Notes under the pieces: generated by a model
Database searches by the model: none
What the model was told of the DNA's origin: nothing
What the model saw: the letters and a program-made list of their open reading frames with translations, nothing else
Shown: positions 4,305 to 52,767 of the stretch, one piece after another
How the letters are laid out: every line of letters starts with the position of its first letter
How positions within the stretch are numbered: position 1 is the first letter of the stretch
Source: a virus
IMG/VR virus record: IMGVR_UViG_3300042945_001953
Location: 1-55,984 of that record
Strand: one strand, 5' to 3'
DNA: 55,984 bases
Translations under genes and position numbers: made by a program

Positions 4305-4335
4305 GTCTGTGCTCCTTGAAAGTTAAACGTTGTTA

Positions 4336-5262: not shown

Positions 5263-5299
5263 TTGGAACCTCCGTGTTCCTGATAGTTAAGGGTTAGTT

Positions 5300-5860: not shown

Positions 5861-5888
5861 AGTTAAGACCTCCGTGTCTTAGGGTTTA

Positions 5889-5905
5889 AAGTGCGCCACG
5901 CACTT
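5889..5905 (-). other. Intergenic 7-bp hairpin upstream of decoration and capsid genes
   Basis: AAGTGCG and CGCACTT form a perfect 7-bp stem with a 3-nt loop in the gap between 5926 and 5860. There is no U-tract on the minus side (TAAACCC follows), so it is more likely an mRNA stabiliser or processing site at the 5' side of the abundant decoration-capsid message than a terminator. Confidence 0.4.
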
Positions 5906-5925
5906 CGTAGTAAAGAATCTCTCAA

Positions 5926-6351: not shown

Positions 6352-6369
6352 GGAAACCTCCGTTTAAAT

Positions 6370-7674: not shown

Positions 7675-7713
7675 AGTTATCTCCTTTGTGCGCCAACATC
7701 GTGTCGGCGTTGT

Positions 7714-9189
7714 TTACATTACATAATTCTGCATAACACAATACGGTGCTGTCAACCCATCACCGTCATATTTTTTCATAAACTCGGCGTACGCTGCGAT
7801 TTTATACATAGCGTAGTGCCGCGCAAGACTAGTTGCAGCTGGATTATTAGTCGCAGCAGTTTTTGTTGTGTGTGTTGTTACCGTGGGTTGTTCGGATTGT
7901 GCCGTGCGAATTGCGGCTAAATAAGCGCGCTTTTCGGTGTTCTCCGGTAACGTGCTTCGCGTAGCGGCGACTTTCTCCGCCCAGATACGCGTATGCTGTG
8001 TTGCCGTATAAGCAGGATTATAAGCATTTTGTTCTAAAGTTGAAAGCAAATCCTGCTCTTCAGCAATTTTAGTAAACACACCCGGCAGTGCAGAACTAAC
8101 CGCCCGTACCAGTTCGGCCTCGGCGGACTTAACGGTGAGAGTTAAGAAGTCTTTAAGCGACAGGATTACGCCGGCGTCGGTTAACGCGCGAACAGCCTCG
8201 GCGATCTTGATATTGCCGAGCTCCTGCGCTGATAACGGTGGCTGAACTGCGCTTGATTCAGCTAAAGCAACATGCGTCCAAATACGCTCAGAGTGACTTA
8301 ATTGCTCGGCGGCTGAGAGCTTTTCCAGCGCAACAACCTGCGCGCGTACACGGTCAGATACGCCGCTATCGATACCAAAAGCAGACGGAGCTGAAACACC
8401 CATGCGCTCAGCCAGTTCTGCGCCTGACACAGTTTCGTGGCTAGCGGCCTTATCGAACGTACCGGAGATGTATGCGATACGATCAGCTGGGCGGAATACG
8501 TGAGAGATATCAAAAAACCGCGGATTCGGATTATCGGCATGAAGTACACTGCCGTCATGTGCAACCTTACCGAGATTGTGCTTTAAACCGCCAGCTTTGC
8601 AGTGACCGCCGTTGCTGGCGTCATCGCAATATTCGGCGCGGGTACGGGCTTTGTTACCGCAATGGCTGCAGACGTCAAACGGAATTGTGCACGCCATAGA
8701 AACGCCGATGTCGTCGCCATTAGCCAGCTTCTCGAGTTCTTTATCGGCAACAAGTCCGCCGTTACGCTCTGCGGCTTCTTTTGTAGCGTTCAGCGCGCAG
8801 AGTAGTTCAATGCGCTTCATCGGCTCGTGATACGCGGACGCTTTTACAAGACCGTAACTCTTGGCCGGGTTCTTGTTCAAATGGTCGCGATAAAATCGGG
8901 CGTGCTTTACAAACGTGTCATGATACTGTTCGCAGCAGGCGCGCTTGAAACCGTCACCGTTACGATTGGGGCCGTAATCTTCTGTAGCGCCAATCGCGAT
9001 AAGGTGCACAGGAACTTCATCTTTTGCGAATTTGATGTTGTGCAGTTTGCTGGCAAATTCAGCACCGGCGCGCTTAATTAAATCGGTCTTGTCGTTGCCG
9101 ATGATGCCGCGGCTCGAGACTTTGATAAGGGCGGCAACCGGTTCGCTGAAGTCTTGCGACTGCGGCTGAATGACTTTGATCATGCTCAT
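7714..9189 (-). CDS. Prohead maturation protease-like protein with zinc-finger insert
   Basis: 491 residues. The N-terminal 200 residues look like a phage prohead protease: NRNGDGF (75-81), a likely catalytic His103 in FYRDHLNK, GLVKASAYHEPMKRIELL (113-130), and a likely nucleophile Ser164 in GVSMAC. Just after this comes an insert with CSHC (174-177) and further Cys/His (YCDDASNGGHC), probably a zinc site. The remaining 290 residues are helical and Ala-rich and may act as a built-in scaffold domain. It is the first gene of the protease-scaffold-capsid order. AAAGGAA stands 6 nt before the ATG. Confidence 0.75.
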   Translation of the reverse strand: MSMIKVIQPQSQDFSEPVAALIKVSSRGIIGNDKTDLIKRAGAEFASKLHNIKFAKDEVPVHLIAIGATEDYGPNRNGDGFKRACCEQYHDTFVKHARFYRDHLNKNPAKSYGLVKASAYHEPMKRIELLCALNATKEAAERNGGLVADKELEKLANGDDIGVSMACTIPFDVCSHCGNKARTRAEYCDDASNGGHCKAGGLKHNLGKVAHDGSVLHADNPNPRFFDISHVFRPADRIAYISGTFDKAASHETVSGAELAERMGVSAPSAFGIDSGVSDRVRAQVVALEKLSAAEQLSHSERIWTHVALAESSAVQPPLSAQELGNIKIAEAVRALTDAGVILSLKDFLTLTVKSAEAELVRAVSSALPGVFTKIAEEQDLLSTLEQNAYNPAYTATQHTRIWAEKVAATRSTLPENTEKRAYLAAIRTAQSEQPTVTTHTTKTAATNNPAATSLARHYAMYKIAAYAEFMKKYDGDGLTAPYCVMQNYVM

Positions 9190-9200
9190 ACGCTATTCCT

Positions 9201-10196: not shown

Positions 10197-10206
10197 GCTG
10201 TATTCC

Positions 10207-11535
10207 TTAAATTAAACCGCGCTCGGTTTCTTGTGTCTGCACAATTGCTTTCTGCTTTTCGGCGCGCAGCTTTTCCATATCCATCAGCTGCTTGATATCG
10301 AAGTCAGCGAGCTGGCCGGCTTCTAAGCGCTTGCGCAATAACGCCTGCACCGTTGCACCAGAGTCCATGAAGTTTGGCGCGACTTCGGCAAGCTCATTAA
10401 ACGCTGTAGCCACTTCGCGCGGATCGTGGCCGGAGATTACAGGGTCGTTTGTTACAAGGTCAGCTAGAACGCCTTGCGCGCGAATATTGCGCAGCTTTCG
10501 GTCGTGGTCAGGATCTGTGATGTCTTGAAAAGCTTCGCCGCGCATCTGGTCGGGCGATTTAACATAACTGCTACCACCCTCAAACATTGTCTGCCCAAGC
10601 ATACGCGTTGCCGACAGTGGGCCCGCCGGAAATGACGGCAACGCATCAGCTTTTTTTAATTCGAGTGACTCCTCGAGCGGGTTGTAAAGCACTGAACCGG
10701 TAATGGTGGCAGGCTCAGCCTTTTTGGCCGCCGCTGTCTTAACCGGTACGCGCTGCTGGGCCGCGTTATAGTCTTCAACTGCCGACAGAACGTTCTGCGC
10801 CAGTTCGCACGGCTCGCATTGGCCGAATACGTGCTTGCCGGTTGCAGCCTGCTTTTCGATATGCGGATAAACCGCCGCAACTTTTTTCAGCACGCTGACT
10901 GCCGCATCGCCGTGCCGTAAGCCGGTCTCGCGTACAGCGTCTTGAAACGCCATATTGCCGGGGCGCCGGAAATACTCGTGCAGCTGCTCCATGGCGCTGG
11001 CTGCTTTGCCGTACGCCGCAGTAGCTTGCCGCCGCAGCTCTTCTTCTGCGCGCTTGGTAGCGATTTTCTCGCTGTTAGCGCGCATGGCAGCCGCGTGCTC
11101 GTCACGTGGCGGCGGCGTCCATGTCTTTTCTGGAAGCGCCACAGTTGCCGAGGCCGCTTTCTGCATGCCGCCGTACCGGCGCGCAATAAAGTCGGTTGGC
11201 GGCACGGCGTATTCTGTCGAAACCGCAGCGGCTTTAACCATTTCTGCCGCTGTCTTAACTTCTTTTGGAAACAGCGCCTCGAGAATCGCGTCGCCGTCGG
11301 CCAGCTTGAAATCAGCCGACTTCTCGGTTGTCGACGCGCCCTTCTCGCGCTGCGTCGTGGTGCGGCCGGTGTTGTAGGCGTGCACCATCAGCTGCACGTG
11401 CCCCGCCGGCATGTTCTCATCCGACGCGATTTTTATGATCGCGGCGTTTGGCTCATCGCCAGCGTTAACACGCTCGGCGGCTTTTTCAATTGCCGTGAGC
11501 AGTTTCGCTTCTGCTTGTTTGCTTAATTGGCGCAT
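10207..11535 (-). CDS. Hypothetical Ala/Lys-rich helical protein, 442 aa
   Basis: Helical, with many short repeats of the type hydrophobic-x-K-x-A (MVKAA, MQKAA, IEKQA). A CEPCE-type Cys pair sits at about residue 240 (GQCEPCELAQN). There is no membrane segment. The C-terminal 120 residues are more globular (DPDHDRKLRNIRAQGVLADL). A GGGAGAA ribosome site precedes the ATG. Its place in the head block suggests an internal virion protein that may be cleaved by the prohead protease. I do not recognise a family. Confidence 0.55.
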   Translation of the reverse strand: MRQLSKQAEAKLLTAIEKAAERVNAGDEPNAAIIKIASDENMPAGHVQLMVHAYNTGRTTTQREKGASTTEKSADFKLADGDAILEALFPKEVKTAAEMVKAAAVSTEYAVPPTDFIARRYGGMQKAASATVALPEKTWTPPPRDEHAAAMRANSEKIATKRAEEELRRQATAAYGKAASAMEQLHEYFRRPGNMAFQDAVRETGLRHGDAAVSVLKKVAAVYPHIEKQAATGKHVFGQCEPCELAQNVLSAVEDYNAAQQRVPVKTAAAKKAEPATITGSVLYNPLEESLELKKADALPSFPAGPLSATRMLGQTMFEGGSSYVKSPDQMRGEAFQDITDPDHDRKLRNIRAQGVLADLVTNDPVISGHDPREVATAFNELAEVAPNFMDSGATVQALLRKRLEAGQLADFDIKQLMDMEKLRAEKQKAIVQTQETERGLI

Positions 11536-15286: not shown

Positions 15287-15305
15287 GGCCACCTCCATGC
15301 GGCTG

Positions 15306-15374: not shown

Positions 15375-17237
15375 TTACGGTTTCCAGCCACTTGTTGCGC
15401 CGCCTAAACCAAACGTTTCACCACGCGCTAACGTTGGTACAAAACTCGTACCGGCTGTATCGCTGACGCCGCCGCGATGAGTAGCGCCCAGCAGGCTTTT
15501 TTGTTGATAAGAGCCCAGCATGCGCGTCATCCAGTCAGGATCCGACGCGACATTCGCCATACCGCGCACCATTTCTGGCTCAAACGGTGGCGGCTCTTTA
15601 TGGGCCTCGATGTCCTTAACGCCATACTTGTTCAAATTGTCTACTACAGACTTACCAATCTTTGTACCGATTGAGTAATGCAGTGCTGGCTTTTCGAGGT
15701 AGTGCCCCATCATACCTTTTGGATTACCGCGTACGCTGCCCGTTCTAGGCTGCCATGTACGCTCAAGCGCAGAATACGGCACTACGTCATCGGGAACATA
15801 GTCGCCGTATTCGTCTGTAAGCCGCACGTGATTGATTAGCCCGCGGGATAAAAGCTCGATATTCCGCCGATGCGCCGTAATTCCGCTGTTCTGCATTACT
15901 TGCCGCATAGCTTGGACGAAATAACGCCGGCCCTCGCCGATGCCTTTGTGCTTTACGATCTCACCCGGACTTGGCATGCCAGCGGACACAACATCGCCAG
16001 CTTCTAGCGTGTCGCCCTTTTTAACGTTAATGGCGACATCTGTTGGTACGTAATGATCTACGCCATTAACGGTCACGTAATTGCCGCCTTGCGCAGCTGG
16101 GCGTATTTCTTGCACTGTGCCGTCAACAGTAGAGTGCGTAGCGCCGTTCGGGTACTTCTCGGGAACCTGTACAAGCGCGTTTAGCGCTTTAAAGCCAGCA
16201 ATAGATCCAGCTCCGCCAACGCCGCCAGAGTGCTTAGAGCTGATCTGCGCCTGCGTGACTGGTTCGGCGAGCGCTTGGGCCGCGGCAATTCCGACATAGT
16301 CGCCAATCGGCGGTAAACGATCTTTCTCGCGGTAACCTACGTCTTTAGCAAATACGCCGCCGTCATCTGGGCCGCCTACTGTCGGGCTGCGCACCAGTAT
16401 GTCGGATATGCCCATGTTTTTCAGGTCTTTGAGTATTTTCGGCGTCAGTATCGTATTCCGCTTATACGGCCCTACACCACGCGCCAGTAGCGCGCCTTCG
16501 TTATCAACGTCGTCAACGTCTGTAGGATACCCGCGACCTTCGTCTGGCACGTCGTCATCATCGTCTTTTGTGACGAGCAACCGATGGTTCATTTGCGTAA
16601 GCTGCTTTGCGAAAAAGCCAGCATCAGACGTCGCAGTCTTTAAATCGATTAGCCCCTTGCGCGTACCGAACGCTCCAGCGAAATACTCTACCGGACGCAG
16701 GCCCTGACTGTAGCTCCGCATCACAGGAATCGGGATCGGGTCGTTCTTGTGATCGACGTATTGCAGGTCTGCGCCAAGCAAGCTATTCAATTGGAATTTA
16801 TTGCCTTTAATGCCGGCTGACACTTGATGGAACAGCGGGTTGTCTTGCTCTTCAGCGTCTTTGTATACGCTGTCTACAAGTTCTTTTTGCGCTGTCGACG
16901 TCATCTCGAGAATTTTGAGATTACGCGCTTTATCAGATAGTGCGCGGTCGGCAAGGATGCCACGTAAGCGCTGTCTTACCTCGTGCTGCTTCTTAAGCGC
17001 GGATATCGTTGGTCTGATAGCGTCAAGACCGACGGATAACCCGTTTGTGGTGTATGACGTGTCACGCCCAACGTCTTGAAGCCGCTTTGTAATATCGCGG
17101 TACTTGTCCGGATACCGTTTTGCTATCTCCGTTGCCAGCGCCGTCATGTTCTTTTTTGTCAGAACGCGGTTGTAGTCTTGGAGATCAGCCGGTAAGGCGT
17201 CATTAATCAGTAATTGGCCCAGTGTTGTTTTAAGCAT
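15375..17237 (-). CDS. Phage RNA polymerase, C-terminal part of beta prime
   Basis: 620 residues equal to the second half of bacterial beta prime. It begins TTLGQLLINDALP, where E. coli has TTVGRAILWMIVPKGLP. Then come the secondary-channel region, the bridge helix (YFAGAFGTRKGLIDLKTATSDAGFF) and the trigger loop region (GIAAAQALAEPVTQAQ, then SSKHSGG) with the His of the loop kept but Met and Arg of the E. coli loop replaced by Ile and Ser. The C-terminal part keeps KKGDTLEAGDVVSAG and a helix like that preceding the E. coli C-terminus. Its ATG overlaps the stop of the upstream 80-residue gene (TAATG). The jaw insertion is short. The N-terminal half with the active-site Asp triad is in 18896..23347. 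Confidence 0.92.
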   Translation of the reverse strand: MLKTTLGQLLINDALPADLQDYNRVLTKKNMTALATEIAKRYPDKYRDITKRLQDVGRDTSYTTNGLSVGLDAIRPTISALKKQHEVRQRLRGILADRALSDKARNLKILEMTSTAQKELVDSVYKDAEEQDNPLFHQVSAGIKGNKFQLNSLLGADLQYVDHKNDPIPIPVMRSYSQGLRPVEYFAGAFGTRKGLIDLKTATSDAGFFAKQLTQMNHRLLVTKDDDDDVPDEGRGYPTDVDDVDNEGALLARGVGPYKRNTILTPKILKDLKNMGISDILVRSPTVGGPDDGGVFAKDVGYREKDRLPPIGDYVGIAAAQALAEPVTQAQISSKHSGGVGGAGSIAGFKALNALVQVPEKYPNGATHSTVDGTVQEIRPAAQGGNYVTVNGVDHYVPTDVAINVKKGDTLEAGDVVSAGMPSPGEIVKHKGIGEGRRYFVQAMRQVMQNSGITAHRRNIELLSRGLINHVRLTDEYGDYVPDDVVPYSALERTWQPRTGSVRGNPKGMMGHYLEKPALHYSIGTKIGKSVVDNLNKYGVKDIEAHKEPPPFEPEMVRGMANVASDPDWMTRMLGSYQQKSLLGATHRGGVSDTAGTSFVPTLARGETFGLGGATSGWKP

Positions 17238-17479
17238 TAGAACAACCTCGACATCTCTTCTACTGATTTTACCTTCACTTCACGCACAATCGTCGTTTTG
17301 TCGATTCCCAACGCTTTTACTAGTCCAGCAAAGTCTTTGTCGCCGGCTGTGGCTGTAACAATGCTGTGGTCGTCGCCTTCTACAGCCACGAAAATGATAT
17401 TGCCGGCGTTATCCTCAAGAATAACGCTGTGCGCGGCAGTTACCGTCGGCTGCAAGAAGTGCTGCGATTTAACGCGCAT
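17237..17479 (-). CDS. Small hypothetical protein coupled to the RNA polymerase gene, 80 aa
   Basis: A small alpha/beta protein (SVILEDNAGNIIFVAVEGDD, then KALGIDKTTIVREVKVKSV). It overlaps the upstream gene by 11 nt and the polymerase gene by 1 nt, so the three are probably co-translated. No motif is recognised and it does not look like an omega subunit (no clear omega helix pattern). It may be an accessory factor of the polymerase, judged only from its fixed place. Confidence 0.6.
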   Translation of the reverse strand: MRVKSQHFLQPTVTAAHSVILEDNAGNIIFVAVEGDDHSIVTATAGDKDFAGLVKALGIDKTTIVREVKVKSVEEMSRLF

Positions 17480-18215
17480 TTTGCGTCAGGCTCCGCAGTA
17501 ACGCCGAAGCGGCTCCGGCTGAAACTTGCAGATTAATTGGCTGCTCGGCTTCGTTGTTCGCGGGAACGGGGTCGCCGATATATGACGCAGCTTTCGGCGC
17601 GTCAGCGAGCTGCCACCACGCGGCCTTTGTTGGCGGAATAGGCGCTACGGCCCCGCCGGTTTGCGCCGGATCAGCCCCGGCGTAAACGTCTTGCGGTAAT
17701 TGAGCTGCAGCGGGGTCGCCAGCCGGGGCAGGGGCCGCGGGTGGTGCGCCGGTACCGCCGGGAAGCGCCTGTTCGGCTGGCGGTGCAGAGGTCGAGCCCG
17801 GTGGCAGCACGATGGCTTCGGGCGGGAGCTGCACACCCATTGCGTTCATGATCGCGGTAAGCTGCTGCTGCATGTTATACAGACGATAATCAATCATCTG
17901 CATCATTTGTTCAGGTTTCAGCTTCTGCTGCGCAGGCGCGGCCGGTGCGGCAGGCGCAGGCGCCGGTGCTGGCGCAGGAGCGCCCATGCCGCCGCCCATA
18001 GGCGGACCGGCGACGGCTGCCATAGCTGGGTCAACCGGGGGAGCGCCGGCCATTGCAGGATCTTGCGGCGGGGCTCCGCCCATAGCGGGATCTGCCGGCG
18101 GCATTCCAGCAGCGCCGGCAGCGGCGTTAGGATCAACGGCCGGGTTCATGACGACAGCCGACTTGCTAAAACGTTCTTTGGCGAGCCGCAGCAGCTCTGA
18201 ATTTACAATAGCCAT
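17469..18215 (-). CDS. Pro/Ala/Gly-rich low-complexity protein, 248 aa
   Basis: A short helical head (AIVNSELLRLAKERFSKSAV) is followed by three imperfect repeats of PP-[AQV]-DPAM-[AG] (about residues 38-70), a Pro-Ala stretch, a helix (LKPEQMMQMIDYRLYNMQQQ) and another Pro/Ala-rich tail. I use the ATG at 18215, 6 nt after GGAGG; a GTG one codon earlier is too close. The helix may be a coiled-coil or tetramerisation segment. Proteins of this composition in phages are often virion-associated, but here it lies between the two halves of the RNA polymerase. No function is assigned. Confidence 0.55.
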   Translation of the reverse strand: MAIVNSELLRLAKERFSKSAVVMNPAVDPNAAAGAAGMPPADPAMGGAPPQDPAMAGAPPVDPAMAAVAGPPMGGGMGAPAPAPAPAPAAPAAPAQQKLKPEQMMQMIDYRLYNMQQQLTAIMNAMGVQLPPEAIVLPPGSTSAPPAEQALPGGTGAPPAAPAPAGDPAAAQLPQDVYAGADPAQTGGAVAPIPPTKAAWWQLADAPKAASYIGDPVPANNEAEQPINLQVSAGAASALLRSLTQNAR

Positions 18216-18251
18216 CACTAACCTCCGTGTTTAATCGAACAGGCGTTTATT

Positions 18252-18881
18252 TTACGATTTTTTGATGCAGCACAGCCACGCTACCTGCGGAAATGCCGGA
18301 TAAAAATTTTCCAAATTTGCCGCGACAGTTACCTCTGCCGTGCTGGCGTCGTCAATTTCGTGCCAGTTCCAGATTTTATCTACGTACTCTGCGTGAAAGA
18401 CATCGCCATTTGGCGCGTAGTCGTGGGCCATAATGACGTCTTGCGGCTTGAGGTACGGCGCGAATAAGTTAAACTCGCGCACCTTGTTGCCGCCGTCACA
18501 AAGTAGCAACACGCGTCCGGGCTCTTGAATAGCCGACACCAGTGCGCGAATGTTTTCTGGCTGAAAAATATCACAAACACGCATGTCGATATTACGAGAA
18601 ACGAATCCAAAACGCTGGCTTAACTCGTCGCGCAAGCCTTCGTTTATCTCATACGTGACAAATTTTGCGCCGATACCGTCGCACAGATCTTTGAGCAACA
18701 ACGACAAGCCGCCGGATGACGTGCCAATTTCTACGACCAGTTTGAAATCAGAATTTGCAGCAAAAAAGTCCCGGAATACCGAGAACGCTTTTGGATTTTG
18801 CTGCGCGCGACAGTCTAAATAAACAAATCCGCCTTCGCGCCAGTCGGTGTCGGCTGGGATTGTGTGTACAAAATCTGTCAT
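18252..18881 (-). CDS. Class I SAM-dependent methyltransferase-like protein (CmcI type)
   Basis: 209 residues with a Rossmann core: motif I VVEIGTSSGGLSLLLKDL (about 49-66), motif II acidic FVTYEIN (around 75-81), and RVLLLCDGGNKVREFNLFAP with YLKPQDVIMAHDY in the second half. This is the pattern of CmcI/cephalosporin-hydroxylase-like methyltransferases that act on small molecules or sugars. GAGGAAC is a clear ribosome site. It sits between the two RNA polymerase genes. It could modify nucleic acid or glycans; the substrate is unknown. The related motif set also occurs in the 37607..39736 fusion. Confidence 0.7.
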   Translation of the reverse strand: MTDFVHTIPADTDWREGGFVYLDCRAQQNPKAFSVFRDFFAANSDFKLVVEIGTSSGGLSLLLKDLCDGIGAKFVTYEINEGLRDELSQRFGFVSRNIDMRVCDIFQPENIRALVSAIQEPGRVLLLCDGGNKVREFNLFAPYLKPQDVIMAHDYAPNGDVFHAEYVDKIWNWHEIDDASTAEVTVAANLENFYPAFPQVAWLCCIKKS

Positions 18882-18895
18882 ACGCGCGTTCCTCG

Positions 18896-21800
18896 TTAAC
18901 TAGTGTGCTCTACAATATGGACAGGCGTGTCGACTTCGATGTCGCCGCGCCGATAAGCCGCAATCGCATCTTTTTTGTTTCGAAACACTTTTGGCTGCGC
19001 CTTTTTATCCACGCGATTAGAAGCAACATACAGCCCAGACTGAAATTCCGCTACTGGCGTGTAATGTGCTTTAAACGTCGAGGCAGCAAACAGATTTTTG
19101 CTCGGCAACATCTTTACGATAGCTTCTTTTGCTGCTTCATCCGTGCTTGGGACGTGATATTGCATCGCGTCCCCGTCAAAGTCGGCTCCGAAACCTTTTG
19201 TTACGAGCGGGCTCACCTCCATAACCTTGTTTTTCGTTAATCGCGGGTAAAACGCCATCATACCATAGCGATGCAGCACCGGCGCTCTGTTAATTACAAT
19301 TGGCCGCGAGCTCATTTGCGTCTGTAGCTCCGCGTGGGCCTCTTTGTTCTTGCTTTCAAAGGCGTTTACAGCCTCCATGCGCGGCAGACCCCGGCGGACG
19401 AGACCCCGTACGATAAATGGCTTGTATATCTCCCACGCTTTCTCTTCCGGCAGCGCCACCTGATCCATATCAAGGTCAGGGTTCGGCGTAATTACAGCGC
19501 GGCCGACGAGATCCACCGTGCTGCTAAGCAGTTTTCGCTGTACGGTGCCGTACTTTGGCGAATTACCGAAGATTTGCGACAGGAAACCGCGCACACGCCG
19601 CTCAACGTTCTTGGCTTGCGTTGGATCGCCTAGACCTGTGACGCCCTTCATCGCGTCATATACACCCAAACGCGCGTCGCCTGTATCTTCAAGCACACCA
19701 GCCGACTCTTTTAGTGCGCCGTTAGCGTCGAGCAGCTCTTTGTACAGATAGTTTGCGTCAGCCACGAGCGGCATCTTCTTCTGCCCCATCGTCGACACAG
19801 GTCGAAACATAGGCGGAATAACCGGCATCTTGTTTAACATCCAGCTCTCTGGGTGTACGCCGGTTTTTTCTGCGCTTTTCAGGAACGCAAGCTTTCGCAC
19901 AGCTGCGTCGCGCAGAGTTTTACGGCCAGATTGGATGTCTTGGCGCGCCTGCTCAATCGCTTTTGGCAGATTGATCTTTTTAAGCGCGGCTGAAATAGCT
20001 TGTGGGCCAGTTGCGTCGTCTAGCTGCTCGCGGCCAGCCAGTACGTCCCGGAATTTCTTTTCTGTTAACCCGAGCACGCGACGAATCGGCTCTTCCATAA
20101 CAGGATTCGGCATCGGCTCAGCCAGCGTGATCTTCGACCAGCGATTTCCGTTGTGCCCGCCTGTGATGGTCTCGTCAAATAACCCGCCGGCTTTAGGCCG
20201 CATTCCGGCTTTCCAGTCAACCGTTTCGGCGTTCTTGAGCTCACGATCGCCCGCAAGTTGCTCGATGTCTTTGTCGGTCAGCGCCATGATGTGCGTTTTT
20301 GTGCCTTCGCGCACTGTGTTAATACCAGAGCCGCGCAGCTGCTCTACGAACTTAGTGTACACCTGCGGAATCCGCGGAAGCGGGGCAGAATAGCCAGCCA
20401 TGAACTGCGACCAGTATTCGGGGTTAGCCTGCCCGCGCACCATTTTGGCGTCGCGTATTACCTGCCCGGCGCCGTGCGATAATAACGCGCCAAGGTCGAG
20501 CGTTCCGATGCGCTTGGAGCCTGTCTCGCCGCCCTTTGCCGGAGCGCCTTCAGCCGTGTAGCCGCCGGTTGATCTACCTTGCGCTTTTGCTTCGGCTGTA
20601 TGGTGTAACTTCATGAAAAAGCGATTGCCGACAAGCACGTCTTTAATTTTGCGGCCTGTATCGGGGTCGGTTACGTTCTCAAGATCTTGCAGACCGTTTT
20701 TGCGTAACTCGCTTTTAGCGAATTCGATGAGATCCTGCTGGCTGTCGAAGTCTTTAATCTTGAAAGGCTGGCCTGTCTTCTCGGCGACTTTACCGAGAGC
20801 CGCTTCGATGAGCTGCGCAGGATTAATACGGCTCGCCAGACCGAGCGGACTGACCAGCACCTCAAGCGGGCGATTCTGGGCATCCTGCGGCATTTGATCG
20901 TCGGGGATAACAGCGGCAACAACGCCTTTATCGCCAAACCGACCGGTCAGCTTATCGCCGACTTCCATGCCGGCCTGATTTTTCACTACGACACTGAAGC
21001 CCTTTTTTGTGGGTGTGACGTCCGTGACGGTTCCGGGCGAGTGATGGTTCCAGACCACGCTGTCGTTAGAGAAGTTAGCCGATTTGCCGCGATAAACTTG
21101 GCCGTATGTTGTCTCGTTGGCTTTGCTGACAAGAATCAGCGGATCGCCGAACTTCACGGTGGCGCCCTTTTTAATTACGCCGTTGTCGTCGAAATTCTCG
21201 AGCGTTTTCTTGTCGTACTCTTGCGGGAATAAGCTGATGAATTTCTTTTTGTCGATGTGGTTGTTCTCGTCAGCTTCGGCTTCGTGCTGGTACATGTGTT
21301 CAGACGTCAGGCGCTTGGCCGCGGACTCTGAAATAACCACAGCATCGTCGTATACGTAACCTTTGAACGGCAAATAACCGACGCGCATATTCAAACCCAG
21401 CGCCGCGGTGCCGTTCTTGTCGGTAAAGTTTGAGGTGGCAAGAAGCTGGCCGGGCTTTACGACATCGCCGGGCTGGACGTTGGCTTTTTGCGTCCAGAAT
21501 GTTTTACGGTTAAATGGCGCGTCGTTGTACAGATCGATTACTTGCTTATTGCCGTCTTTATCGCGCAGCGTAATATCGTCGGGCGTTACTGCCACAACCT
21601 GCGCGTGCCCATCGGCGTACACGGCGCCCATGTTTTTACCCATGTCGTCTTCGTACGACTTACTCGAGTCTGTTGCGACGGCTGATTGAATAAGCGGGGC
21701 TTCAGCGCCAACGAGCGGGAGCGCCTGCGTAAACATGCGGCTACCCATGATCACGCGGTGGCCCTTCATGAACGCCTTCATCGGCACCATGTTTGAGAGC

Positions 21801-23347
21801 GACGACAGTGACGAGTCCATGTCAGGAACCATGTACTGCGCTTCTTCGCGCGGCACGTATTTCATCTTGCCGTTTACGATAGCGGCCACATTCGGCAGAT
21901 CGCTGTTATCTTCGCCGGGGAAAGCCAGCGGCACGTCAGCGATGTCCTGCGGCGACTTGTATTCCAGCTCGCCGGTCTTGAGGTTCTTCACCTTCATGTA
22001 GATTTTGCCGTCAGAGCCCTTTAAAGCTCCGCGGGCAAATCGCATATCGACGCCGACCTTGCCAGATTCCGGTGTTCTGAGGTAATCCACAAAACCGAAA
22101 TGGCTCGGTTGCACACTGCGGCTTTCAACTGGCACCGCGTCCAAGCTCCCGATACCGCCTTCGCCAAGTCGTGTGACGCGCGCTTGATGATCGAAAATTT
22201 CAGCCGGATTAATTTCCTCAAGGCTCGAGCCCAGCCCGCTTCCGACAAGCGCCGCAGTAATAGCTTTGTTAAATACGCCCGTCGGAACGTGGTCGAGTGT
22301 TTTCTTTGCCGTAGCCTTCCAAAGTAACTGCCGCAGCGTGTTGCGGTCTTTGGTAAACCGCTCGGCGATCAAATCCTCTGGCCCGAGGATATGCTGGAAC
22401 GCCATGCTGTCGCGGTCGTCTGGGTCTGATTCTTTGCGATTTACAGCAATCAGCTTTTTTGTGATCTTAAGAATAGCGTCAGGCGTGAGGTTCTTAATAG
22501 GCTCTCCCAGCGTGCGCTTTGTCACCTCCGGGTCCATCTCCATCCGACTAAACTCATCGAAGATAGCCTTCTGCTTGCCTTCCGCGTCGATACCGGGCAC
22601 TGGCTTGTAGACAAGTCGGCTGTATAGCTTATCGATAGTGCCGGCGTCGCCTTTTTCCATGTTTACAGCGGTAAGTTCGTTGCCCCACGCTTTGCGGATT
22701 TCTTGCTCCGGCACGCCCATAGCTTTAAGCATCGGCATAAGGGGGATCTGCGCCTGCCCGATATTGATCTTAAATACGCCGGTCTTGGGGTCGAGGAAGT
22801 AGCGGTGCATGCGGCCTTTACCCGGCAGCACATTCACATGCGCTTCGAGCTCGCCGTTGTCTTTCTCGCGGGTGTATACGCCAGCCCGCAACCGCATCTG
22901 GTGCGCCAGCGTGTACTCGACGCCGTTGTTTACGAACGTCCCGGCGTGCGTAAGGTATGGCACATTAGCGATAGTGGCCCGCTTCTGCGAGATAGGCTTG
23001 CCTGTTGCGTTATCTGTTAGCGTCCACGTTCCGCGGAGCTTTCTGGCTAAACTGCCGTGCGACAAAATCGCGGCTTTATGCTCGCGCTTTGAGAACGTCT
23101 CTGGGCCTTCGTAGCCGACGTCCTGCAGACTTAACGTATACAGATCGTTCTGGATCGGCTTGATATTCTGGGCTTCTCGTACAGCGCCGTTAAAGATGTT
23201 GTTGCGAATAGCGCTCGGCTCAAACGGCGCTACGGCAATGGCCGACTGCTGCGCTTGCTGGAACACGCCACCGCGAAGAGCGTTTACGTCACCGAATTCA
23301 CGAGTGCTTGGCGTCAGTATCGAGTTGGACGGATTTAAGTCTGGCAT
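18896..23347 (-). CDS. Phage RNA polymerase: beta fused to N-terminal beta prime
   Basis: 1483 residues. The beta part shows the lobe/protrusion (GTFVNNGVEYTLAHQMRLRAG), the fork (HFGFVDYLRTPESGKVGVD), the GSRMFTQALPLVGAEAPL segment, GLNMRVGYLPFKGYVYDDA and the switch/flap region GRFGDKGVVAAVIPDDQMP with PLEVLVSPLGLASRINPAQ. It continues without break into beta prime (PVIPPMFRPVS, RPIVINRAPVLHRYG) and ends about 90 residues after the catalytic loop ADFDGD (1388-1393, Asp triad at 1389, 1391, 1393). The zinc-binding domain at the N-terminus of beta prime, usual in bacteria, is absent. The E. coli site of the split lies just before TTVGRAIL. No alpha, omega or sigma gene is visible in the window. 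A GAGAAAG site precedes the ATG. Confidence 0.95.
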   Translation of the reverse strand: MPDLNPSNSILTPSTREFGDVNALRGGVFQQAQQSAIAVAPFEPSAIRNNIFNGAVREAQNIKPIQNDLYTLSLQDVGYEGPETFSKREHKAAILSHGSLARKLRGTWTLTDNATGKPISQKRATIANVPYLTHAGTFVNNGVEYTLAHQMRLRAGVYTREKDNGELEAHVNVLPGKGRMHRYFLDPKTGVFKINIGQAQIPLMPMLKAMGVPEQEIRKAWGNELTAVNMEKGDAGTIDKLYSRLVYKPVPGIDAEGKQKAIFDEFSRMEMDPEVTKRTLGEPIKNLTPDAILKITKKLIAVNRKESDPDDRDSMAFQHILGPEDLIAERFTKDRNTLRQLLWKATAKKTLDHVPTGVFNKAITAALVGSGLGSSLEEINPAEIFDHQARVTRLGEGGIGSLDAVPVESRSVQPSHFGFVDYLRTPESGKVGVDMRFARGALKGSDGKIYMKVKNLKTGELEYKSPQDIADVPLAFPGEDNSDLPNVAAIVNGKMKYVPREEAQYMVPDMDSSLSSLSNMVPMKAFMKGHRVIMGSRMFTQALPLVGAEAPLIQSAVATDSSKSYEDDMGKNMGAVYADGHAQVVAVTPDDITLRDKDGNKQVIDLYNDAPFNRKTFWTQKANVQPGDVVKPGQLLATSNFTDKNGTAALGLNMRVGYLPFKGYVYDDAVVISESAAKRLTSEHMYQHEAEADENNHIDKKKFISLFPQEYDKKTLENFDDNGVIKKGATVKFGDPLILVSKANETTYGQVYRGKSANFSNDSVVWNHHSPGTVTDVTPTKKGFSVVVKNQAGMEVGDKLTGRFGDKGVVAAVIPDDQMPQDAQNRPLEVLVSPLGLASRINPAQLIEAALGKVAEKTGQPFKIKDFDSQQDLIEFAKSELRKNGLQDLENVTDPDTGRKIKDVLVGNRFFMKLHHTAEAKAQGRSTGGYTAEGAPAKGGETGSKRIGTLDLGALLSHGAGQVIRDAKMVRGQANPEYWSQFMAGYSAPLPRIPQVYTKFVEQLRGSGINTVREGTKTHIMALTDKDIEQLAGDRELKNAETVDWKAGMRPKAGGLFDETITGGHNGNRWSKITLAEPMPNPVMEEPIRRVLGLTEKKFRDVLAGREQLDDATGPQAISAALKKINLPKAIEQARQDIQSGRKTLRDAAVRKLAFLKSAEKTGVHPESWMLNKMPVIPPMFRPVSTMGQKKMPLVADANYLYKELLDANGALKESAGVLEDTGDARLGVYDAMKGVTGLGDPTQAKNVERRVRGFLSQIFGNSPKYGTVQRKLLSSTVDLVGRAVITPNPDLDMDQVALPEEKAWEIYKPFIVRGLVRRGLPRMEAVNAFESKNKEAHAELQTQMSSRPIVINRAPVLHRYGMMAFYPRLTKNKVMEVSPLVTKGFGADFDGDAMQYHVPSTDEAAKEAIVKMLPSKNLFAASTFKAHYTPVAEFQSGLYVASNRVDKKAQPKVFRNKKDAIAAYRRGDIEVDTPVHIVEHTS

Positions 23348-30899: not shown

Positions 30900-31196
30900 T
30901 TAACGCAGCATACCAAAAATCGCGTTAACTATTGCGTATGTCATGTACAGCCAAAACGTTACGCCAATTACCCAGCCGATCTTACGTAAAGGTAATTTGA
31001 AAAATTCCGTGCGAAGCTGCTGAAACGGGATATTACGCAAAATAGCCAGCGCGCGGATGTAGTTAATCAGCTGAATGTTGCTGGGTGTAACAACTGGCGG
31101 CTCTGGAGTGACTGGAGCCGGTTCCGGTGCGGGAGCCGGCTCTGGTTGCGGCTCGACTCTCTTTGGATACAGCCAGTTGCGCACTCTGTTAAACAT
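30900..31196 (-). CDS. C-terminally anchored membrane protein with Pro-Glu linker, 98 aa
   Basis: I start at the ATG at 31196, which overlaps the last 8 nt of the upstream gene; the longer frame begins at a TTG inside that gene. A basic N-terminus (FNRVRNWLYPKRVEP) is followed by a Pro/Glu/Ala linker (PAPAPEPAPVTPEPP), a helical segment (LINYIRALAILRNIPF) and a C-terminal membrane helix (GWVIGVTFWLYMTYAIVNAI). The Pro-rich spacer resembles TonB- or spanin-like periplasm-spanning arms, though orientation here is not clear. No family recognised. Confidence 0.55.
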   Translation of the reverse strand: MFNRVRNWLYPKRVEPQPEPAPAPEPAPVTPEPPVVTPSNIQLINYIRALAILRNIPFQQLRTEFFKLPLRKIGWVIGVTFWLYMTYAIVNAIFGMLR

Positions 31197-49332: not shown

Positions 49333-52300
49333 TTAGTCCGCGTCCGGGCCATACTCAGAACCGAAGAAGAAATCTCGAATTTTCTCGTACGTGCTACGCG
49401 AATCATCCGGGTCGTCTTTAAATTCTTTCTCAGCTTTAATCTTGTGTTTCTTGGGCGACAGATACTGCTGATACGCCAACCCCGGAATTGGCGTGCCTAC
49501 GTACATACGCGGCGCACGCTTACCGAACGTAAAGCTCGTTCCGGGGATGAGTTTCTTTACAGTTAAACTAGGTCCGCCAAGACTTAAATTCACAGCAAGG
49601 TTTTCAGTCATCGGAAACCGTTTGTACCAGCGAAACGCGGCCTCTTTGCCGAAGTCGGCCAGTTCTAGATTCACGCTGCCGCACTTGCAGTTCCATTTGC
49701 GCAGTGATTTGTTAATACGCGAATCCGGATCTGATTTGGCTTTGCTGCCCGTGTTCTTACTCTTCATTCCGCACATACGCGAGCAGAAAGAATTCTGCCG
49801 CTTCGCACGGTCGCCCTTCGGGTTAGACTCCGTCACGGGAGCTTTTAAGTTTCCGCCCGTAGATCTGTTGTAGCTCGCGCGGCCTTTGGCGTTTAAACCG
49901 CCTTCTTCGTTTTTACCGGCGCTACGCTGCCACGCTGGACTAGAGCCCGCAGCCTTGCCGAACGCAGTTAAATCCGCGTTTGTCTTGCTCATAAAACCGT
50001 TGTTCCACATATCCATACCCATACCAACAAGCGTGCCAACTTGACTTGGATCGCGCCCCGGGCCAGCAAAACTTAACGCCGGTACGTCATAGCCCGTCAT
50101 AGTTTTTACACCAGCTCGTATGGTGTCTTCCGGTGTTTTGACGCCGGCGATCACCTTAATCGGCGCGGGGGTTAGCTCAGCTTTGCTAGACATTAACGAC
50201 GCAGGCATTGGCCCGGGTTTAAGCGATTTTGGCGAAGTTGGAGGCGGGACTTTGCCGGCGAGATAAGTAAACTTGCCTGACCGCGCAAATCCGGGAGAAG
50301 GCGTAGTAGGAGCCGCAGGCGGTTTAGGTGTGGCTGGGGTAGGCGGCTGTACAGCTCCCATACTTTGCGCCGCTGTCTTCTTCTGCGTGCCGACTTCTCT
50401 GAGTAATTGCCGAAAGCGTTCGTTAAGCACTTCTTTCTCCTTCGATAACCGCTCGAGAATTTCGTCGCCGGTTCGTTCGCGGCGGTAGCCCATGAGCTTG
50501 CCAATAAAGCTCGGCTCTTCTGACTTTGATATAAACCGCTGCACAGCTACGTTCTTGAGCTCTTCAGGCAGGTCGTCGTGGCTGTCAAAGCGCAAACCAC
50601 GGCCCTGAGCTTGCTGTGTCCGGCTTTCGTGCCAGTGCGGGTCTAAGAGCTGGATAAGGTTCGTGCCCTTGGTCGACAGACCTTCAGCGCCAGCAGGGCC
50701 AATTAAAAGCGCGCGCAGCTTGCCCTCGTTGTAATCTTTCAGGGCCTGCTGGCGGATCTTTGTGGGTACGCCGCCGTGGAACATGCCGTGCGGGATGTTG
50801 TACTTATTCAACGCGGCAGCATAGGGCTCTAAGCCAGCGCCAATATGGTTTGAATAAATAATTGCTTTCCTGCGCGGGTCTGAATCAAGTGTTTCCCGCA
50901 GGCGCTTGTACGCTTCTTGTAATTTCCCAGATTGCTGGAACGCCTTGAACGTGTCCTTGTCAGCCCGGAATGGCAGCGGCGACACTGAGTTCTGCCGCAG
51001 TCCCGTCAAGAAGCTATTGAGTTTCGAGAGCTCGTCTTTGCTCAGCGGAAACTCTTTGTCCAGCTTCCAGAGAAAGCCCGGTGGAATTTTGGTACGCAGG
51101 GCTTTCTGAATTTTTTGCTGCGTGCCCGAGAGCGGAACGGTAATCTTCTCTTCGTTAACGTTCACGCCTTCGGGGGTCTTGCTTGGTTGATAGTCCACGT
51201 GGCCGGTAAGCGTCTGCTTTAGCTCGCGCTCGTTTTTAATGACAGGGCGCACGCCGGGCTTCACGCCAGCCAAAAAGTTAATAATACCGGGGTGGACAGT
51301 CTTGTAGCCGACGTACCTGCGCTCGAACTCTTGCGGCGAGATGTTCTTCCTAGCTACGAGAGAGATTAAGTTAGCCAAGTCACTAGGAGAATTAGTGATA
51401 GGCGAACCAGTGAGCAGCAGTAATCTCTTGGCGTTCTCAGCTACTCCCTTTGCTGCTTGAGCTGCAGAACCGCCCGGATTACGCAGCCTGTGCGCTTCGT
51501 CCATGATCACAGTCTGCGGCTGGTTGGTGAACTTCTTGCCCAGCCCAAGCCCCGTGTAAGACATAATCTCCGGCTTGCTGCCCGTGGTAAACTTCTCTAC
51601 TTCTTTTTGGAAGTTCCCCTTTAAGCTAGCCGGCGCAACGATGCCGTAGTCGTCGTTGTACTTTTGCTTGGCGGCTTCGGCAGCAGCGAGGGCCGAGAGC
51701 GATTTACCAGAACCGAGCCCGTGATAAACAATCATCCGCGGATTATCGTCATCTACGGTGTCTTGGATTCTCTGCTGGTGCTCTTGCAGCTGGACTTCGG
51801 GAAGCAGCGCGGATTGTTTGGCTAACGGTATTTTTAATGGCAACGTCATTTTGAATAACGACGGATTAGCGCCAAGTCCCTGTGATGCCGCTGCTTGCCG
51901 TGCCACAAGGTCCGAAAAGCGAAAATCGAGAACACCCTTCGAATTCATCCGCACGCCGCTGCCATACGACACACCACGACCTTGCCGCATAAGGCTTTTC
52001 CATACACGCTGCGCGGCATCTGATACTTCTGTGTCGCTTGAAATTCGTCCTCCGGGTACTTGGCGAGCCAACTCCATGTACATTTTTTTGCCGAGACCCA
52101 TTCCGCGGAACTTATCTGATAATTCCGAACGCACAATTTGCGTACGGCCAAATGGATCCACAGTTGTCTTCATAAGGCCAGCAGGCGTTTTACCAACAAA
52201 CGCGCGGTACATACCAGACGTTACACTGTCAGGCACGAGCTTGAAAAGCGCGCGTAATCTTGAGGCACTTTTTTCGTTTGCTAAATCCGCCTGATTTTGG

Positions 52301-52767
52301 TCGGTTTCGGCCTGCTTGGCCCGCTCTTGAATAAACTGCTGCATGGCTTTGTTCTTGTACGCGTCCAGCATTTCGGTCGTTGCTGGGGCTTGCTCAGGCG
52401 CGACGAGCTTACTGGGGTCGATTCCCCAGTTCCGCAGCGCCCAGCCCCTTCTTGGCGTTGGCTTTTTAGTGAATGGCCCGCCGTGACGTGACTTAAAGTT
52501 CAACCAGCGCTTCATCTGGCGCTCGTCTTCTTCGGGGATCCTTCTCCCAGACGCGTAGCGCTTGTACCACTGCGCCCAGCCCTTCGGGTCGTGCTCGGAG
52601 ACCCATTCGGGCTTCCATTCGCCCAAGCTGGCTAAACGCGGGCCTTGGCCACGATACAGGGCGTCGTAAACACCCAAGTGCTCGAGCTGCTCCGGCGTAT
52701 AGTCTGGCTGAAAACGCCCGGCTAAGTCAGCTGCCGGATTTTCAGGTTGCTCGGGGCTGTCGGGCAT
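49333..52767 (-). CDS. GNAT acetyltransferase / SNF2-type helicase / DUF6321 / DUF4236 fusion, 1144 aa
   Basis: A four-module protein. Residues about 180-275: GNAT-type acetyltransferase with KFRGMGLGKKMYMELARQVP as acetyl-CoA motif. Residues 320-760: SNF2-family ATPase with Walker A GLGSGKS (about 350), DEAH box VIMDEAHRL (about 418), GSPITNSPSDLANL and, in the second lobe, IIYSNHIGAGLEPYA and QAQGRGLRFD. Residues about 940-1020: SPAWQRSAGKNEEGGLNAKG with RQNSFCSRMCGMK, the DUF6321 signature. Residues about 1043-1100: the DUF4236-type GPSLTVKKLIPGTSFTFGKR. The lower-complexity linkers carry K-x-A motifs (FGKEA, FGKAA, LAKQS), possible cleavage sites. This is probably a DNA-remodelling or packaging-related factor. 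Confidence 0.7.
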   Translation of the reverse strand: MPDSPEQPENPAADLAGRFQPDYTPEQLEHLGVYDALYRGQGPRLASLGEWKPEWVSEHDPKGWAQWYKRYASGRRIPEEDERQMKRWLNFKSRHGGPFTKKPTPRRGWALRNWGIDPSKLVAPEQAPATTEMLDAYKNKAMQQFIQERAKQAETDQNQADLANEKSASRLRALFKLVPDSVTSGMYRAFVGKTPAGLMKTTVDPFGRTQIVRSELSDKFRGMGLGKKMYMELARQVPGGRISSDTEVSDAAQRVWKSLMRQGRGVSYGSGVRMNSKGVLDFRFSDLVARQAAASQGLGANPSLFKMTLPLKIPLAKQSALLPEVQLQEHQQRIQDTVDDDNPRMIVYHGLGSGKSLSALAAAEAAKQKYNDDYGIVAPASLKGNFQKEVEKFTTGSKPEIMSYTGLGLGKKFTNQPQTVIMDEAHRLRNPGGSAAQAAKGVAENAKRLLLLTGSPITNSPSDLANLISLVARKNISPQEFERRYVGYKTVHPGIINFLAGVKPGVRPVIKNERELKQTLTGHVDYQPSKTPEGVNVNEEKITVPLSGTQQKIQKALRTKIPPGFLWKLDKEFPLSKDELSKLNSFLTGLRQNSVSPLPFRADKDTFKAFQQSGKLQEAYKRLRETLDSDPRRKAIIYSNHIGAGLEPYAAALNKYNIPHGMFHGGVPTKIRQQALKDYNEGKLRALLIGPAGAEGLSTKGTNLIQLLDPHWHESRTQQAQGRGLRFDSHDDLPEELKNVAVQRFISKSEEPSFIGKLMGYRRERTGDEILERLSKEKEVLNERFRQLLREVGTQKKTAAQSMGAVQPPTPATPKPPAAPTTPSPGFARSGKFTYLAGKVPPPTSPKSLKPGPMPASLMSSKAELTPAPIKVIAGVKTPEDTIRAGVKTMTGYDVPALSFAGPGRDPSQVGTLVGMGMDMWNNGFMSKTNADLTAFGKAAGSSPAWQRSAGKNEEGGLNAKGRASYNRSTGGNLKAPVTESNPKGDRAKRQNSFCSRMCGMKSKNTGSKAKSDPDSRINKSLRKWNCKCGSVNLELADFGKEAAFRWYKRFPMTENLAVNLSLGGPSLTVKKLIPGTSFTFGKRAPRMYVGTPIPGLAYQQYLSPKKHKIKAEKEFKDDPDDSRSTYEKIRDFFFGSEYGPDAD

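What the first reader, a model, noticed from the sequence alone, without database searches (positions are those of the whole stretch)
15375..23347. Split and fused multisubunit RNA polymerase encoded by a phage
Seen: 18896..23347 reads beta motifs, then beta prime motifs up to ADFDGD, in one chain; 15375..17237 reads the remainder of beta prime starting at the E. coli TTVGRAIL position. Known: cellular RNAP has separate beta and beta prime; the giant phages phiKZ and AR9 split both subunits; Helicobacter fuses whole beta and beta prime. The arrangement here (beta with half of beta prime, then the other half) is different. No alpha, omega or sigma gene was found. A deep-branching Caudovirales polymerase has been reported (Weinheimer and Aylward 2020, from memory), which this may extend.
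Basis: partly seen in the sequence, partly recalled or inferred. Interest (0 to 1): 0.85.

Follow-up and report, generated by a model that had tools for sequence, protein, structure and literature searches.

The report
Fused-and-split phage RNA polymerase with sigma
A large family of tailed phages encodes an RNA polymerase in which one bacterial subunit and half of the other are joined in a single protein and the remaining half is a second protein; together with a dedicated sigma-like factor it appears to be packed into the virus particle and carried into the bacterium.

Summary
On the minus strand, 23347-18896 encodes 1483 aa: whole RNAP beta fused to beta' through and past ADFDGD. 17237-15375 encodes 620 aa, the rest of beta' from the TTVGRAIL position; nothing of beta' is visibly missing at the split. 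It is neither an assembly error nor a one-off: of 104 distinct relatives in IMG/VR loci, 103 have beta and beta'N in one ORF (the other runs off a contig end); none has beta'C there. Isolated Salmonella phage Arash and Vibrio phage D69 share the split point at 31-33% identity. Two things change the reading. (1) The lineage has a sigma: a divergent sigma-70-like family in 30 of 30 large records examined; the 56-kb window lacks it. Alpha and omega families: 0 of 30. (2) In published virion proteomics of Arash the fused protein is the most-detected protein; beta'C and this sigma are present too. The window enzyme has no cysteine in 2103 residues, a trait reported for N4-type injected RNAPs (phiKZ's virion RNAP has cysteines). 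Best explanation: an injected, alpha/omega-less, sigma-dependent virion RNAP. New variant; I found no description of the architecture. mReC membership unproven.

The parts
18896..23347 (-). Fused RNAP subunit beta-beta'N, 1483 aa: beta about residues 1-1012 (23347-20312), then beta' N-terminal half about 1013-1483 with catalytic ADFDGD (residues 1388-1393, 19169-19186); beta motif GRFGDKG residues 802-808 (20924-20944). No cysteine; beta' zinc ribbon 1 absent.
15375..17237 (-). RNAP beta'C, 620 aa, from the TTVGRAIL-equivalent (MLKTTLGQ) to the beta' C-terminus; AAQALAEPVTQ (trigger-loop region) at 319; its ATG overlaps the stop of the upstream ORF (TAATG). No cysteine.
17237..17479 (-). 80-aa conserved protein between the two RNAP genes, function unknown, no Pfam hit, no cysteine; tblastn homologue in nearly all close relatives, and in one (L091) of the 48-61% group
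17469..18218 (-). 249-aa Pro/Ala-rich conserved protein with a central KPEQMMQMxDYRLYNMQQQLTAIMNA block; no Pfam hit; no cysteine in the window copy
18252..18881 (-). 209-aa methyltransferase-like ORF (Methyltransf_24 E 0.002, below cut-off); among the relatives found only in the 100%-identical L002
12890..15298 (-). 802-aa protein directly downstream of beta'C, homologue of Arash virion protein gp218 (profile E 1.6e-16; gp218 1149 spectra in virions)
7714..9189 (-). 491-aa homologue of Arash virion protein gp222 (37% over 248 aa, E 7e-35)
49333..52767 (-). 1144-aa SWI2/SNF2-type helicase; residues 322-789 match Arash helicase gp217 (33%, E 2e-64), which lies beside beta'C in Arash and is in its virion (1148 spectra)

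Best explanation
It is a virion-packaged, injected multisubunit RNA polymerase made of two chains (beta-beta'N and beta'C) plus a lineage-specific sigma-like factor, without alpha or omega. The fused chain brings both catalytic double-psi barrels together in one polypeptide and so replaces the alpha-driven beta/beta' assembly; beta'C docks on it to complete bridge helix, trigger loop and clamp. The complex is made late, loaded into the head among other virion proteins, passed through the tail largely unfolded (no zinc ribbons, no cysteines) and refolds in the host, where the co-packaged sigma directs it to phage early promoters independently of host RNAP. Shown: architecture, homology, conservation, absence of alpha/omega families in relatives, sigma co-occurrence, cysteine absence, presence of the Arash homologues in virion preparations (published). 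Inferred: activity, assembly without alpha, sigma pairing, ejection, early transcription.
For: Architecture and homology. Catalytic Asp triad kept; layout in 103 of 104 distinct relatives. Phage clade apart from 21 bacteria, FastTree support 1.0. Alpha PF01000 and PF01193 0 of 30, omega PF01192 0 of 30, positive controls ringing. Sigma-like family: 30 of 30 records that I chose for size, one strong match each (70; the 11 profile rows come from 11 of these records, so 19 are independent); best PDB profile match SigA E 9.6e-15; by tblastn it hits 4 of 50,697 phage records (three weakly, E 3e-4), the same 4 whose fused protein matches over at least 80% of the query. Virion: in Arash, Gp206 3516 spectra (most of all), Gp216 1210, Gp010 (the family sigma; identity checked) 467, Gp217 1148, Gp218 1149; Gp196, the other annotated sigma, does not occur in the main text by that name. 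Homologues of three Arash virion proteins lie around the window's RNAP genes. Cysteine: 0 in 2103 aa against 9.4 per 1000 in the other 51 window proteins examined; 68 of 75 and 81 of 97 distinct relatives have none; sigma family 0 in 4541 aa. Papers (passages) say N4-like virion RNAPs lack cysteine and link this to injection.
Against: No biochemistry here. Virion proteomics is from Arash, 32% identical; its authors note that abundant enzymes may simply still be present in purified particles. Three phiKZ virion RNAP genes do have cysteines (13 in 2390 aa; 132), so cysteine absence is not required of virion RNAPs. Arash beta'C keeps four cysteines (a zinc site) and gp206 one. Sigma pairing rests on co-occurrence and co-packaging; the sigma gene is not beside the RNAP genes and could instead serve host RNAP. 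The sigma is not in the window, so for this phage it is inferred from relatives.
Confidence: 0.68

Rival explanations
1. It is a non-virion RNAP made during infection for middle/late genes (like phiKZ nvRNAP or AR9 nvRNAP); its detection in Arash particles is carry-over.
For: Arash authors raise carry-over themselves. Other phage multisubunit RNAPs (YerA41, Carin-5, RHph_Y65) sit beside replication and nucleotide genes. phiKZ virion RNAP genes are not cysteine-free, so the cysteine argument is not universal.
Against: Gp206 is the single most-detected protein in Arash particles, above the major capsid protein, and Gp216 and Gp10 are found too; homologues of Arash virion proteins surround the window's RNAP genes; cysteine loss in all three proteins.
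Confidence: 0.2
2. The sigma-like protein works with host RNAP, and the phage RNAP recognises promoters by itself or through another protein (as AR9 gp226 or phiKZ gp68 do).
For: Non-adjacent gene; some relatives also carry other sigma-70-type proteins (7 of 30 over the PF04542 cut-off).
Against: 30 of 30 co-occurrence; in 50,697 phage records it is found only with the fused RNAP; co-packaged in Arash while the other sigma is not named in the main text; like the RNAP it has no cysteine, whereas five other sigma-type proteins of these phages have 1-3 each.
Confidence: 0.2
3. Assembly or frameshift artefact, or a decaying gene.
For: None beyond the unusual layout.
Against: Same layout in 103 of 104 distinct relatives from many metagenomes and in deposited isolate genomes; 83% mean column identity in close relatives and intact catalytic motifs.
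Confidence: 0.01
4. It is simply a member of the mReC lineage of Weinheimer and Aylward 2020, whose fused/split layout went unmentioned (not exclusive of the best explanation).
For: Fused-and-split relatives occur in IMG datasets 3300017987, 3300017960, 3300017991 and 3300017992, numbered next to their reference dataset 3300017989; that these are sibling samples is my inference from the numbers. 16 of 75 distinct fused proteins have N before ADFDGD, as their filter wants. A scan for beta' with the bacterial zinc ribbon 1 in viral contigs found only 4 loci.
Against: Their named contigs were not found here; the window has GADFDGD; their MCP family PF07068 0 of 30 (no positive control rang) and TerL PF03237 2 of 30, one over the cut-off. 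Lowered from 0.6 on checking, because the sibling-sample argument is inference.
Confidence: 0.5

Closest known systems
Salmonella phage Arash RNAP (gp206, gp216, sigma gp10; OQ632216, PMC10585845) and Vibrio phages D69, D181, D148
   Same: Same fusion and, in Arash and D69, same split point; same sigma family; no alpha or omega family in Arash, D69, D181; homologous virion genes nearby (Arash)
   Different: 31-33% (beta-beta'N) and about 25-27% (beta'C) identical; DYDGD motif; beta'C keeps a 4-Cys zinc site; annotated only as 'beta' and 'beta'' or hypothetical; no mention of fusion in the Arash paper's main text (term search). In D181, and by its hit row D148, the fused gene is interrupted with a homing endonuclease gene in the gap.
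mReC RNAP (Weinheimer and Aylward 2020, PMC7481178)
   Same: Phage beta and beta' recognisable by cellular profiles; clade apart from bacteria; metagenomic phages
   Different: Paper does not mention fusion or split of its own enzymes (terms searched); marker genes mostly not recovered here; identity unproven
phiKZ/AR9 vRNAP and nvRNAP (PMC7598289, PMC13282480, passages)
   Same: No alpha or omega; beta' split after the catalytic barrel; vRNAP in virion; a Swi2/Snf2 helicase linked to RNAP genes is reported for that group (PMC7824862)
   Different: Beta also split, beta and beta' not fused, 4-5 polypeptides, no sigma recognisable by sequence; three phiKZ vRNAP genes contain cysteines
Cyanobacterial RNAP (gamma / beta')
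   Same: Beta' split just after the catalytic domain
   Different: Beta separate; alpha and omega present (recalled); split about 20 residues further down by extrapolation of the alignment
Helicobacter/Wolbachia fused beta-beta' (recalled); crAss-like RNAP
   Same: Beta joined to beta'
   Different: Whole beta' in the fusion, no second chain (recalled); crAss enzyme too diverged for cellular profiles (PMC7481178)
YerA41, Carin-5 and Rhizobium RHph_Y65 phage RNAPs
   Same: Phage multisubunit RNAP; YerA41 beta' split
   Different: Beta and beta' separate in YerA41 and Carin-5, beta' whole in Carin-5 and RHph_Y65, no beta found in RHph_Y65 by PF00562; YerA41 split about 50 residues further down; 4-16 cysteines per protein
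N4-type virion RNAP
   Same: Injected RNAP reported to lack cysteine (PMC2784036, PMC3915230, PMC3715699, passages)
   Different: Single-subunit T7-like enzyme, unrelated fold

Membership tests
Double-psi-barrel multisubunit RNAP (beta/beta') | Both catalytic double-psi barrels with D-x-D-x-D and basic residues | tested here: met
   ADFDGD at residue 1388, GRFGDKG at 802; Pfam Rpb2_6 and Rpb1_2
Double-psi-barrel multisubunit RNAP (beta/beta') | Predicted fold of the beta part and of beta'C resembles RNAP | tested here: met
   AlphaFold beta'C pLDDT 86, PDB beta' E 4.5e-29; fused residues 560-1483 pLDDT 76, best 50 PDB rows all beta chains, E 3.6e-32; the beta'N half rests on sequence
Cellular bacterial RNAP core | Alpha and omega subunits | tested here: not met
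   PF01000, PF01193, PF01192 each 0 of 30 large relatives; controls rang in 13, 13 and 14 of 14
Cellular bacterial RNAP core | Beta and beta' as two separate chains | tested here: not met
   of 66 bacterial rpoBC loci none in one ORF
phiKZ/AR9 RNAP group | Beta split into two or more chains | tested here: not met
   Beta whole in the window. A few relatives (e.g. L106, L108) break beta at an intein-like cut
phiKZ/AR9 RNAP group | Beta' split after the catalytic barrel | tested here: met
   Split between RpoC ~568 and 572; comparison from PMC7598289
mReC (2020) | NADxDGD motif in beta' | tested here: not met
   Window GADFDGD; among 75 distinct relatives G 53, N 16, A 2, no match to the pattern 4
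mReC (2020) | RNAP clade distinct from cells | tested here: inconclusive
   Apart from 21 bacteria; no archaea, eukaryotes or mReC references in the tree
mReC (2020) | MCP PF07068 / TerL PF03237 where detected | tested here: inconclusive
   0 of 30 (no positive control rang) and 2 of 30, one over the cut-off
mReC (2020) | Identity or clustering with the named reference contigs | not testable with these tools
   No contig of 3300017989 or 3300000786 among the loci listed by seven scans; supplements not readable
Sigma-70 family (the companion protein) | Regions 2-4 homology | tested here: met
   Profile covers SigA chain 8h3v_G 191-378, E 9.6e-15
Virion RNAP | Present in mature particles | not testable with these tools
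   Only by homology with Arash proteomics

The most novel reading that the evidence does not exclude
A three-chain RNA polymerase holoenzyme (beta-beta'N, beta'C, own sigma), without alpha, omega, zinc or cysteine, is carried in the capsid of a widespread family of large phages (records of 180-235 kb) and injected: to my knowledge the first injected multisubunit RNAP with a sigma-70-like factor recognisable by sequence, and an unusually economical sigma-dependent multisubunit RNAP.
Probability: 0.5. Interest if true: 0.88.

Novelty: new variant of a known kind. Interest (0 to 1): 0.74.

Why it matters
It offers a natural alpha-free, zinc-free version of the cellular RNA polymerase that still aligns readily with bacterial RpoB/RpoC, so it can test how beta and beta' assemble without alpha, what sigma needs from core, and how a very large enzyme is threaded through a phage tail and refolds. 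An isolated phage (Arash) with published virion proteomics makes these questions testable at once. It also bears on whether phage RNAPs descend from fused, split or separate ancestors.

Tried and rejected
Rejected: artefact (recurrence); 'no sigma' for the lineage; the 209-aa methyltransferase as part of the enzyme (only the window and L002); insertion of that gene as the cause of the split (relatives without it have the same split).

Led nowhere: finding the W&A reference contigs in seven viral scans. One search listed 46 loci and four; the other five were capped at 80, so most relatives were not listed (e.g. 488 confirmed, 80 kept) and the most distant or unfused relatives may be missing. 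PF07068 rang in no control (71). Pfam did not recognise the L030 insert (108); the inteins are called from sequence signature only. Paper searches (no paper), 90 and 94 and the citing list 89 gave no description of the layout; of the 10 papers listed in 89 I opened W&A itself and PMC7598289, PMC12153180 and PMC10159854, the other six not. Subscription papers and supplements were not readable. Promoter motifs were not attempted. One viral scan and one genome search were left unused.

Against my reading and kept: phiKZ virion RNAP cysteines (132); Arash zinc site and single gp206 cysteine (119); carry-over caveat of the Arash authors (56).

Rows dropped before counts: tree, 80 bacterial loci -> 66 with both genes -> 41 after redundancy -> 21 where the TT-GR motif was found; phage side 282 loci with both full-length HSPs -> 39 after redundancy, plus window, Arash and D69 = 42 (87). 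One search used loci L001-L440 and counts a protein as fused if any part of beta residues 481-1015 shares the beta'N ORF, so relatives with beta cut at ~942 (e.g. L106, L108) count as fused. Cysteine counts use distinct full-length HSP sequences without large inserts (120). The 30 large records were chosen by me for size; other large contigs were found and not searched.


Full report
OBSERVATION. The minus strand encodes a 1483-aa ORF at 23347-18896 and a 620-aa ORF at 17237-15375. phmmer against PDB chains aligns the first with bacterial RpoB (best E 9e-69; one cyanobacterial chain, 8gzg_C, over query 108-1012) and, from query ~1086 to 1478, with beta' (6wvj_D, to residue 539). The second aligns with beta' from about residue 577 (8i23_D, Clostridium) or 658 (8dy7_D) toward the C-terminus. 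Pfam agrees. Against Salmonella RpoC the first chain ends opposite ~568, the second begins at TTVGR, residue 572. The beta/beta' junction is tight: beta ends near ...QLRGSGINTVREG (RpoB ...EIRSLGINIELEDE), and the beta' part reaches GGLFD about 40 residues later. Structure prediction of residues 560-1483 (36 sequences, pLDDT 76) finds RpoB chains (E 3.6e-32; the 50 rows shown are all beta chains, so the beta'N half is supported by sequence only), and of beta'C (45 sequences, pLDDT 86) finds beta' chains (E 4.5e-29).

CONSERVATION. A scan of IMG/VR with the window protein gave 46 loci at 69-100% identity. Nearly all loci long enough to show it have the order beta-beta'N, 249-aa Pro/Ala-rich protein, 80-aa protein, beta'C, 802-aa protein; the 209-aa methyltransferase-like ORF is only in the window and L002. 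Wider scans with alignments (each capped at 80 loci) reach about 37-40% identity to the window. Over L001-L440 there are 104 distinct beta'N catalytic segments: 103 share an ORF with beta; the one exception runs off a contig end; 0 share an ORF with beta'C, in the 90 whose loci contain beta'C. A motif count over 360 loci (many from the same contigs) gave the same picture: 325 ORFs with ADFDGD, 0 with the beta'C motif, 290 with the beta motif; of the other 35 those looked at were motif variants, truncated loci or ORFs broken in beta.

ISOLATES. In 50,697 phage records the fused protein covers at least 80% of the query in 4: Salmonella phage Arash and Vibrio phages D69, D181, D148 (31-32%). Arash gp206 (1525 aa) ends at the same point as the window protein and gp216 (606 aa) starts at the same point; so do the D69 proteins. 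In D181 the fused gene is broken, with a homing endonuclease gene in the gap.

SIGMA, ALPHA, OMEGA. In 27 large IMG/VR records (186-235 kb) plus Arash, D69 and D181, alpha (PF01000, PF01193) and omega (PF01192) gave 0 of 30 each, with controls ringing. PF04545 gave hits in 24 of 30, 5 over its cut-off; extracting the hits showed one recurrent 234-284-aa family, including Arash gp10. Its profile matches SigA structures over regions 2-4 (E 9.6e-15) and finds one strong member in each of 30 records (the 11 profile rows come from 11 of those records; D69 and D181 each show one further weak match). By tblastn it hits 4 of 50,697 phage records, the same four, three of them weakly (E 3e-4). The window itself has none; in records G010 and G011 the gene lies about 34 kb downstream of the fused gene, so a 56-kb fragment can miss it. 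Other sigma-type proteins occur in 7 of 30 over the PF04542 cut-off.

VIRION. The Arash paper (passages; abstract and section list) reports LC-MS of particles: Gp206 3516 spectra, the most of any protein, MCP 1333, Gp216 1210, Gp218 1149, Gp217 1148, sigma Gp10 467. Its authors suggest early transcription or carry-over, and call Gp206 'beta'. The other Arash sigma, Gp196, does not appear in the main text by that name. Window proteins at 12890-15298, 7714-9189 and 49333-52767 are homologues of Gp218, Gp222 and Gp217.

CYSTEINE AND ZINC. The window's two RNAP chains have no cysteine (2103 aa); the other 51 proteins examined have 9.4 per 1000 aa, so a Poisson chance of none is ~3e-9. 68 of 75 distinct fused proteins and 81 of 97 distinct beta'C have none; bacterial RpoB and RpoC average 6.8 and 11.5 (66 loci). 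The beta' N-terminal zinc-ribbon motif is absent in 75 of 75; a second-site motif is present in 13 of 97 beta'C and the four cysteines in Arash and D69. The sigma family has 0 cysteines in 17 proteins, 4541 aa, whereas five other sigma-type proteins of these phages have 1-3 each. Three papers (passages) say that N4-like virion RNAPs lack cysteine and link this to injection. Control against: three phiKZ virion RNAP genes have 13 cysteines in 2390 aa, four non-virion ones 18 in 1887 (these are not all subunits; virion or non-virion from the record's 'structural head protein' notes and from recall). So the signature supports, but does not prove, ejection.

EVOLUTION. A FastTree of beta+beta'N+beta'C for 42 phages and 21 bacteria puts the phages in one clade (local support 1.0; beta alone 0.965, beta'C alone 1.0), with Arash/D69 as the sister of the rest. 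Fusion and split therefore predate the Arash divergence. Other isolate phages show different states: Carin-5 separate whole beta and beta', YerA41 beta' split but beta separate, RHph_Y65 whole beta' and no beta found by PF00562. The split after the catalytic barrel recurs in phiKZ/AR9 and cyanobacteria (PMC7598289, passages).

LITERATURE. W&A 2020 (part 1 of the text, sections 7, 12 and 13, and passages) does not mention fusion or split of its own enzymes: 'split' does not occur, 'fused' and 'fusion' occur once each, for crAssphage. Of 11 library papers holding its title phrase (10 listed) I also saw passages in PMC7598289, PMC12153180 and PMC10159854; the last speaks of a gene for 'beta and beta prime', rooted at the base of that clade, without describing architecture. 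The 2026 review PMC13282480 (passages) says jumbo-phage RNAPs lack homologues of alpha, sigma and omega. PMC11835377, PMC9123017 and PMC7824862 were seen as passages. I found no description of this architecture in searches, within this library only.

MECHANISM. Shown: sequence, layout, conservation, missing alpha/omega families, sigma co-occurrence, cysteine loss, published virion presence for Arash. Inferred: that one chain carrying both barrels removes the need for alpha, that sigma and core work together, that the enzyme is ejected and transcribes early genes. Verdict: a real, widespread architecture that I found described nowhere in the library; new variant of phage multisubunit RNAP.

Noticed in passing
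L030, L032, L033, L034, L039 (inside beta, after RTPE before S428): In-frame ~340-aa intein-like insert (starts C, ends N before S, LLGWYLGEG block) in beta; L123 has one at the same site, and L065 one in beta'C at AAQAL|S. Inserts at other beta sites in L102, L111, L115 were not examined closely.
   Followed up: partly
L106 8001-14665 and L108 8001-13155: Beta is cut into two ORFs at residue ~942 with intein-like N and C halves at the cut ends and, in L106, an unrelated 637-aa ORF between them: looks like a split intein reassembling an RNA polymerase subunit by trans-splicing. L186 breaks at the same place but was not checked.
   Followed up: partly
L126, L127, L129-L132, L134, L139, L141, L185 (beta'C ORFs): Beta'C carries 448-771-aa C-terminal extensions. 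Of the 8 scanned with Pfam, L126 has a P-loop AAA/kinase-like domain and DUF5661, L139 a LigD phosphoesterase plus ATP-dependent DNA ligase domain; no family over its cut-off in the other 6.
   Followed up: partly
window 31189-33498: 769-aa protein with 2H phosphoesterase and NUDIX domains and a sub-threshold DUF5661 match; DUF5661 recurs in the L126 RNAP extension.
   Followed up: no
window 37607-39736; 28174-28983; 52770-53567; 40186-40274: Mannosyltransferase-methyltransferase fusion; matrixin-type metalloprotease with peptidoglycan-binding domain; trypsin-like protease; one tRNA-Ser(tga).
   Followed up: no
PHROGs phrog_24349 and phrog_25354: Listed as unknown function but match the window's beta (E 1e-65) and beta' parts (E 3e-53 and 4e-31); they look like RNAP subunits.
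   Followed up: no
L594 (YerA41) 4847-10911; L595 (Carin-5) 4083-10908: Two further phage multisubunit RNAP layouts: beta' split with separate beta, and whole beta' plus beta preceded by an annotated sigma gene that does not match the sigma family found here.
   Followed up: partly
window 17237-18218: Two small conserved genes between the RNAP genes (249 aa Pro/Ala-rich, 80 aa), without cysteine in the window; may be accessory or co-packaged proteins.
   Followed up: partly
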